This document shows, in pieces, positions 2,864 to 48,647 of a stretch of 60,600 nucleotides of DNA. Position 1 is the first letter of the stretch. Every line of letters starts with the position of its first letter. This DNA is from Candidatus Hydrogenedentota bacterium (GTDB lineage Bacteria > Hydrogenedentota > Hydrogenedentia > Hydrogenedentales > JAEUWI01), in assembly GCA_016182605.1 (NCBI GenBank), contig JACPGE010000100.1, positions 1-60,600 on the forward strand. The letters run 5' to 3'. The notes beneath the pieces are model-generated. The model saw only the letters and a list, made by a program, of their open reading frames with translations. It was not told where the DNA came from and searched no databases. The translations under genes and the position numbers were made by a program.

Positions 2864-3060
2864 GCTCAACTTCCTCGAATTGCCGAAACCCAAACTGTGC
2901 GCAGGTGTCTATCCTCGCACACTGCACCCAGCGCTTCCAACACGCCAACCCCACAATACGCATATCCCGCATAACGCTCACTCACGCGTGTCGTTGGCCA
3001 AAGCTTGGATCCGGAAATAACAGACAGCCCGTGATTTAGCCTGCCCGATGAACGCCAGCA

Positions 3061-3144
3061 CCATCGTCACGCTGAGCCTATTTCACCACGTCTCAAGAGG
3101 AGCGTGGTGTAAGAAAGCCTTGAAGTGGTGGAATAGGCGAGCTA
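3061..3144. repeat. Inverted-repeat element, copy A (see 29728-29810)
   Basis: The first 28 bases (3061-3088) match 29728-29755 at 26 positions, including the shared CACGCTGAGC core. Arms 3076-3089 and 3125-3138 form a 14-bp inverted repeat with one mismatch around a 35-nt loop. The right flank GCGAGCTA matches GCGGGCTA in copy B. Where the copies differ in the arm (C here, A in copy B), the partner base differs accordingly (G here, T in B). Confidence 0.7.
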
Positions 3145-3369
3145 CCCACGCAGCAGGCATCGAGCCTCGAAGCGGATTCTGGCGGTCCCGAAAAGTATAG
3201 AATGCATTACCCGGCGCTTGTCGACCGATGGAGACGAGGAGCTGCCGGAACTCTCCGGCTGTCGCATATCCTTTCGCGGCAGGGCAGGCTTGAAAGCATA
3301 GGGCCAATTTCACTTGACAGCGGACCCCTGTTGAGCGCATCTTAAGAAGTGCTGTAAAGAATAAATCGA

Positions 3370-29640: not shown

Positions 29641-29868
29641 TCATTGACCGGCCCCGATTTACTGTGACGCACAGGAACGCCTGAGTTGCGGCGCGCCGCC
29701 CTGCCGGCTCGATCCTGCCAGGGAGCGCCATCGCCACGCTGAGCATATTTCACCATCTTGCCAATCCTGATGTAATCTCGAGGCCACAGAGTGGTGAAAT
29801 ATGCGGGCTAAGAAGGAGCTACGGAACAGATGCTTGGAGCCCGTGATTTATCCAGACTAAAGCCAAAA
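29641..29868. other. Intergenic gap upstream of the rpsU promoter
   Basis: About 230 bp. It holds repeat copy B (29728-29810) and the block AGCCCGTGATTTA (29838-29850), which also occurs at 3026-3038. No gene or clear terminator for the preceding long gene was found. Confidence 0.6.
29728..29810. repeat. Inverted-repeat element, copy B (see 3061-3144)
   Basis: GCATATTTCACCA (29743-29755) and TGGTGAAATATGC (29792-29804) are a perfect 13-bp inverted repeat around a 36-nt loop, nearly the same loop length as copy A. The loop sequences themselves differ between copies. It lies 59 bp before the rpsU -35 box. Confidence 0.75.
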
Positions 29869-48626: not shown

Positions 48627-48647
48627 GGCCCGGATAAATCTCGGGCC
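48627..48647 (+). terminator. Hairpin after the epimerase operon
   Basis: GGCCCG and CGGGCC (6 bp) flank a 9-nt loop. No T-run follows within ten bases, so it is a weak terminator at best. Confidence 0.4.

What the first reader, a model, noticed from the sequence alone, without database searches (positions are those of the whole stretch)
3061..3144. Two-copy intergenic inverted-repeat element with a compensatory base-pair change
Seen directly: 3061-3088 and 29728-29755 match at 26 of 28 bases and both loci carry a partner arm 35-36 nt further on. In copy A the arm has GCCTATT pairing with AATAGGC; in copy B GCATATT pairs with AATATGC. The C:G pair of one copy is A:T in the other, so pairing was kept while sequence changed, and the loop length is kept though the loop sequence is not. 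That suggests selected structure: a non-autonomous mobile element (MITE/REP-like), a solo transposon end, or a structured RNA. Only two copies are in the window, so genome-wide spread is unknown.
Basis: seen in the sequence. Interest (0 to 1): 0.62.

Follow-up and report, generated by a model that had tools for sequence, protein, structure and literature searches.

The report
IS1380-driven double-hairpin MITE family
The two hairpins are broken copies of a short parasitic DNA element with no genes of its own, present about 160-180 times in this bacterium's genome and most likely moved by the enzyme of an IS1380-type (piggyBac-related) jumping gene; it is a new family of a familiar kind, and its matching base change is not good evidence of a selected structure.

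Summary
3061-3088 and 29728-29755 lie in the right half of a ~204/205-bp element with about 160-180 copies in this 6.76-Mb Hydrogenedentota genome. The full element is two hairpins joined by a short linker, with terminal inverted repeats CCCGGATAAATCAC and CCCGCATATTTCACCAC. It is flanked by 4-bp target duplications of form YTAR: 68 of 100 copies have identical flanks, against 14 expected. Most copies lie between genes. It is therefore a MITE. The left ends and transposase N-terminus of an IS1380-family insertion sequence sit at two broken contig edges of the same genome. Complete IS1380 elements in relatives carry nearly the same ends; one right end matches the MITE's at 16 of 17 bases. IS1380 is therefore the likely mobiliser. 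Rarer 108-bp left-only and 68-69-bp right-only elements, some with duplications, suggest the 204-bp form is a fusion of two palindromic mini-elements. The 'compensatory' change is not a family property: across 92 hairpins, 81 pairs changed on one side only and 3 on both. Both window copies are truncated, so probably dead. The family appears undescribed, but the kind is known.

The parts
2967..3141 (+). Copy A: 5'-truncated MITE (consensus positions ~31-204; first ~31 bp with the left terminal repeat missing), upstream of ftsK
   Evidence: nhmmer with a profile of 100 full-length copies, E 1.7e-39; alignment
3026..3041 (+). Copy A: inner arm of the left hairpin (AGCCCGTGATTTAGCC); its outer partner is lost in this copy
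   Evidence: sequence and alignment to the family consensus
3076..3089 (+). Copy A: inner arm of the right hairpin, GCCTATTTCACCAC (consensus GCATATTTCACCAC)
3125..3141 (+). Copy A: outer arm of the right hairpin and right terminal repeat, GTGGTGGAATAGGCGAG (consensus GTGGTGAAATATGCGGG); CTAC at 3142-3145 is in the place of the target duplication but cannot be tested because the left end is lost
29712..29807 (+). Copy B: right half only of the MITE (consensus ~102-204), between a large secreted-type protein gene and rpsU; CTAA follows at 29808-29811
   Evidence: nhmmer E 1.2e-22; Ribosomal_S21 downstream
29743..29756 (+). Copy B: inner arm of the right hairpin
29791..29807 (+). Copy B: outer arm of the right hairpin and intact right terminal repeat GTGGTGAAATATGCGGG
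29808..29855 (-). Inverted fragment of the left end of another copy (consensus 2-49) abutting copy B
   Evidence: nhmmer E 6.7e-9
48629..48646 (+). Isolated left-end-like 18-mer CCCGGATAAATCTCGGGC (17/18), possible remnant, weak
   Evidence: nhmmer E 0.16; sequence

Best explanation
The feature is a MITE: a short gene-less transposable element of ~204/205 bp, made of two hairpins joined by a linker of about 30 nt, ending in CCCG... terminal inverted repeats and flanked by a 4-bp YTAR target duplication. Shown: anatomy, target duplication, copy number, intergenic bias, and ends shared with IS1380-family insertion sequences, one of which is in the same genome. Inferred: an IS1380 transposase (DDE, the bacterial counterpart of piggyBac) binds the terminal repeats in trans, cuts the element out and inserts it at YTAR (TTAA-like) tetranucleotides. 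The target sites made by one insertion can serve as targets for the next, which would give the tandem copies at ~208-bp spacing. Also inferred: the 204-bp form arose by fusion of two smaller palindromic elements (108 bp and 68 bp), both still found alone, after the two ends facing the junction lost their CCCG tips. Copies A and B of the window are truncated descendants.
For: ~160-180 copies in the own genome: 158 right-half and 180 left-half pattern hits against 2 and 0 for reversed controls. 68 of 100 full-length copies have identical 4-bp flanks against 14.3 (max 25) when flanks are shuffled; lengths 1-3 and 5-8 show no excess; consensus YTAR. Terminal pattern TANCCCGNATANNTCAC: 245 hits in G000, 249 in G047, 94 in G022, 80 in G048, with reversed control ~0. 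Full-length IS1380 elements (NCBIfam NF033539 E 1e-118; PF13701 E 2e-152) of 1,691-1,712 bp in G006 and G038 carry these ends; the G006 right end matches the MITE right end at 16/17, and G038 has TTAG on both sides. In the host itself the IS1380 left end plus transposase N-terminus lies at the edges of contigs C99 and C118, both broken at the same base as expected for an unresolved repeat, and a third left end is interrupted by an IS630. Only 11/83 full copies fall in a predicted gene (31% of control YTAR sites do; coding fraction of the window 87%). 108-bp left-only and 68/69-bp right-only elements exist, three of them with identical target duplications. Literature pairs piggyBac with IS1380-like elements (PMC5718144).
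Against: The interior and right end of the host IS1380 were not recovered, so matching of both ends within one genome is not shown; its left end matches the MITE left end at only 11/14 and the MITE right end at 14/17. No empty site in a close relative could be examined: no other genome of the genus is held and no 204-bp copy was found in 39 relatives. No transposition has been observed. The two full-length IS copies in G006 lack identical flanking tetranucleotides. The fusion origin is inferred from few small elements, which could instead be deletion products.
Confidence: 0.88

Rival explanations
1. REP/BIME elements: short palindromes spread by a RAYT (IS200/IS605-like TnpA-REP) transposase, acting as single-stranded hairpins without target duplication.
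For: Intergenic, many copies, hairpins, mosaic left/right modules, tandem copies; the genome has 10 Y1-transposase matches.
Against: A clear 4-bp target duplication, which tyrosine HUH transposases do not make (own knowledge). None of the 10 Y1 loci carries the element in the flanks fetched, up to 1.5 kb on each side. Terminal repeats resemble IS1380 ends.
Confidence: 0.04
2. A structured RNA or regulatory hairpin (terminator, attenuator, protein-binding RNA) kept by selection on base pairing.
For: Both window copies fold better than all shuffles. All 3 double changes are complementary. The inner arm of the left hairpin changes about three times less than the loops within subfamilies (0.93% against 3.1%).
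Against: No Rfam match. 81 of 84 changed pairs are changed on one side only. Permuting arms leaves pairing unchanged. The inner arm of the right hairpin drifts as fast as the loops (2.5% against 2.9%). Copies lie between genes in all relative orientations.
Confidence: 0.05
3. The MITE is mobilised by another transposase family with a 4-bp YTAR target (IS5 group, IS701, IS630) rather than by IS1380.
For: YTAR or NTAN targets are also described for such families (own knowledge); one IS630 and four DDE_Tnp_1 proteins are in the genome.
Against: The IS630 and the IS1634-like element examined have unrelated ends. No IS701 (DDE_5) is found. IS1380 elements have nearly the same ends in relatives and in the host.
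Confidence: 0.07

Closest known systems
IS1380 family insertion sequences (PF13701 / NF033539), bacterial counterpart of piggyBac
   Same: CCCG-type terminal inverted repeats nearly identical to the MITE ends; YTAR/TTAA-like flanks; present in host and relatives
   Different: 1.7 kb with a 476-486 aa transposase. The MITE keeps no recognisable transposase sequence; apart from the ends no similarity was noticed. IS1247 (IS1380 family, Paracoccus) is listed with a 5-bp duplication (PMC3281130), here 4 bp
Chunjie MITE of Geobacter uraniireducens
   Same: 178-235 bp, dozens of copies, many partial copies lacking ends, intergenic (review PMC10969869)
   Different: Not compared at sequence level; original paper not held. 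Double-hairpin architecture not reported in the passages read
MITEPye1 (Paracoccus yeei) and other prokaryotic MITEs with a named parent
   Same: Terminal repeats shared with an IS family, duplications, hairpin folding, intergenic (PMC11578231)
   Different: Parent is IS1182; 1-3 copies per chromosome rather than ~160-180
Truncated QMITE2 copies of Coxiella burnetii
   Same: Loss of one end turns MITE copies into REP-like hairpins (PMC10969869), as in window copies A and B
   Different: Sequences were not compared

Membership tests
MITE (non-autonomous DNA transposon) | Short (<~500 bp), no transposase gene | tested here: met
   87 of the 100 paired copies are 204 or 205 bp; far too short for a transposase
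MITE (non-autonomous DNA transposon) | Terminal inverted repeats | tested here: met
   CCCGGATAAATCAC / CCCGCATATTTCAC, 11 of 14 identical; terminal columns 94-100% conserved
MITE (non-autonomous DNA transposon) | Target site duplication | tested here: met
   4-bp YTAR, 68/100 exact against 14.3 shuffled
MITE (non-autonomous DNA transposon) | High copy number, mainly intergenic | tested here: met
   158-180 hits; 72 of 83 outside predicted genes
MITE mobilised by IS1380 (type I MITE) | Ends shared with an IS present in the same genome | tested here: inconclusive
   Host IS1380 left end found (11/14 and 14/17 against the MITE ends); right end not recovered
MITE mobilised by IS1380 (type I MITE) | Ends shared with IS1380 elements of relatives | tested here: met
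   G006 right end 16/17, left end 11/14; G038 13/17 (right) and 12/14 (left)
MITE mobilised by IS1380 (type I MITE) | Transposition in trans by the IS1380 transposase | not testable with these tools
   needs an experiment
REP/BIME with RAYT | No target duplication; RAYT gene flanked by the palindromes | tested here: not met
   duplication present; no element near any of 10 Y1 transposases
Structured RNA family | Rfam match or covariation across copies | tested here: not met
   no Rfam hit; no clear excess of paired cells over permuted arms, and 2 double changes against a permuted mean of 0.38, reached in 14 of 300 permutations

The most novel reading that the evidence does not exclude
The two-hairpin layout is functional, not accidental: each hairpin is an independently mobile palindromic unit, and the conserved inner arm of the left hairpin (0.93% change against 3.1% in loops) is needed for IS1380 transposition, for example as a second transposase site or a hairpin/cruciform intermediate, giving a composite MITE class common across Hydrogenedentota.
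Probability: 0.15. Interest if true: 0.5.

Novelty: new member of a known kind. Interest (0 to 1): 0.3.

Why it matters
It explains a conspicuous repeat of an uncultured phylum and likely contig breaks in its genomes, and links a high-copy MITE burst to the IS1380/piggyBac lineage; no IS1380-derived MITE family turned up in the papers searched. The same terminal signature is greatly enriched in several Hydrogenedentota genomes and found in Thioalkalivibrio, Rariglobus, Sideroxydans and Phycisphaerales, so one rule, CCCG-type ends plus a YTAR duplication, could annotate many unexplained repeats. It also warns that one complementary change between two copies is not evidence of selected structure.

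Tried and rejected
RAYT/REP origin: PF01797 gave 10 loci, none with the element nearby. IS630 (PF13358), IS1634-like (PF01609) and IS701 (PF13546) as parents: different ends or absent. An exact 20-base scan of GTDB genomes for the right end found only scattered records. A viral contig scan gave one hit with a poor terminal match (2 mismatches), not pursued. Text search for the terminal sequences in papers: none. A first test of insertion sites by open-frame length was biased by stop codons inside YTAR and was replaced by codon-usage gene prediction. Contig starts and ends were fetched to find the right end of the host IS1380, without success. The original Chunjie paper is not held.

Full report
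Check of the observation. The 26/28 match and the two partner arms are real, and both hairpins fold better than every shuffle. Rfam has nothing in the window.

Copy number and extent. A 98-bp query from copy A gave 40 scored matches in the own genome, all with E below 1e-17. The 19-base arm pattern gave 158 hits against 2 for the reversed pattern. Aligning flanks showed that the finding is only the right half of a longer unit whose left half starts CCCGGATAAATCACGGGCTCC; that left end has 180 hits, control 0. In 463 kb of own-genome sequence gathered around the hits, 100 left/right pairs were found, 87 of them 204 or 205 bp; five of the 100 (177-181 bp) fall below the length cut and were dropped from the later 95-copy alignment, most of them pairings with the wrong arm. 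A profile of these copies maps copy A to 2967-3139, copy B to 29712-29807, and an inverted left-end fragment to 29855-29808. Both window copies are therefore truncated. No 204-bp copy was found in the 39 relatives searched, none of which is of the same genus.

Target duplication. In the 100 pairs, the 4 bases on the two sides are identical in 68, against 14.3 (maximum 25) in 1,000 shuffles of right flanks; other lengths show no excess. The matched tetranucleotides are TTAG 23, CTAA 16, CTAG 11, TTAA 7, CTAT 5 and a few others, that is YTAR. Tandem copies share the duplication, giving the ~208-bp spacing seen. One element sits inside another at ATAG (C29).

Location. With a simple codon-usage gene finder, 11 of 83 full copies fall within predicted genes, against 31% of other YTAR sites in the same flanks; genes cover 87% of the window. 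Copy A lies upstream of ftsK and copy B upstream of rpsU.

Parent. IS200-like, IS630, IS1634-like and IS701 candidates were excluded. The terminal pattern TANCCCGNATANNTCAC is strongly enriched in several genomes of the phylum, with the reversed pattern as control. A contig of the same phylum set (G045:C268, 14,031 bases) has the same length and nearly the same match position as JAKLHG010000034.1, Candidatus Hydrogenedentota RA.bin58, which names the phylum. A search for IS1380 transposases (PF13701) found full-length elements in G006 (same family) and G038 whose ends carry the pattern. The protein is an IS1380 transposase. Left and right ends even share the asymmetry of the MITE: TCACG at the left, TCACCA at the right. 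The own genome gave no PF13701 hit, but a protein search found the first 30 residues at the very edges of contigs C99 and C118. Just upstream lies TA[AG]CCCGGAAATTTCACC, and both contigs break at the same base, as an unresolved multi-copy IS would. In C99 this IS has inserted into a MITE copy. A third left end on C108 is interrupted by the IS630. Its right end was not found.

Architecture. Conserved blocks are the two terminal repeats, the two inner arms and the linker; the two loops fall into subfamilies that combine with each other in several ways. Left-only 108-bp and right-only 68-69-bp elements occur, three with identical 4-bp flanks. 108 + ~28 + 68 equals 204, so the common form is probably a fusion of two palindromic mini-elements whose inward-facing CCCG tips have decayed. 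This is inference. The small forms might instead be deletion products.

Compensatory change. Across 92 distinct right hairpins: 57 inner and 30 outer changes, 3 pairs changed on both sides (all complementary, 1.45 expected), 58 pairs broken and 23 reduced to wobble. On the aligned full-length copies, permuting arms leaves pairing unchanged, with 2 double changes against a mean of 0.38, reached in 14 of 300 permutations. Within tight subfamilies the right inner arm changes about as fast as the loop (2.5% against 2.9%). The terminal repeats (0.3 to 1.0%, partly biased by how copies were selected) and the left inner arm (0.9%, not biased) change less. Constraint therefore follows the transposon ends and, less expectedly, the left inner arm, not base pairing in the finding's own hairpin.

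Mechanism. IS1380-like transposases are the prokaryotic counterparts of piggyBac (PMC5718144), which uses TTAA targets (PMC7351741 abstract). The YTAR target and CCC-type ends here fit that mechanism. Trans mobilisation, cut-and-paste and preference for YTAR sites left by earlier copies are inferred.

Novelty. No IS1380-derived MITE was found in the papers searched; the prokaryotic MITE review does not mention IS1380. The library is incomplete and ISfinder could not be searched. This is a new family of a known kind.

Noticed in passing
L256:1416-1588 and L252:1-160 (C118 and C99 edges): The host IS1380 has a long, near-perfect hairpin between its left end and the transposase ATG, the kind of structure that could block transposase translation from read-through transcripts.
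   Followed up: no
L148:912-2272 (G047:C93): Two 175-bp IS1380-type MITEs in opposite orientation flank an epimerase-like gene; the outer flanks are CTAA on both sides, so this may be a composite MITE-gene-MITE unit.
   Followed up: no
L139:4999-5174 (Thioalkalivibrio NZ_KB898963.1): A 176-bp IS1380-type MITE with CTAG on both sides lies inside a 943-aa uvrA-like reading frame that stays open through it.
   Followed up: no
L153 and many contig edges of G022: G022 has about 90 terminal-repeat hits (TA[AG]CCCGGATATCTCACC), many of those listed within ~55 bases of contig starts: a high-copy IS1380-type repeat probably breaks that assembly.
   Followed up: partly
L120:3149-3557 (C29): One MITE has inserted into the inner arm of another at ATAG, a nested insertion.
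   Followed up: partly
window 48629-48646: Isolated 18-mer 17/18 identical to the MITE left end between two predicted genes; remnant or chance.
   Followed up: partly
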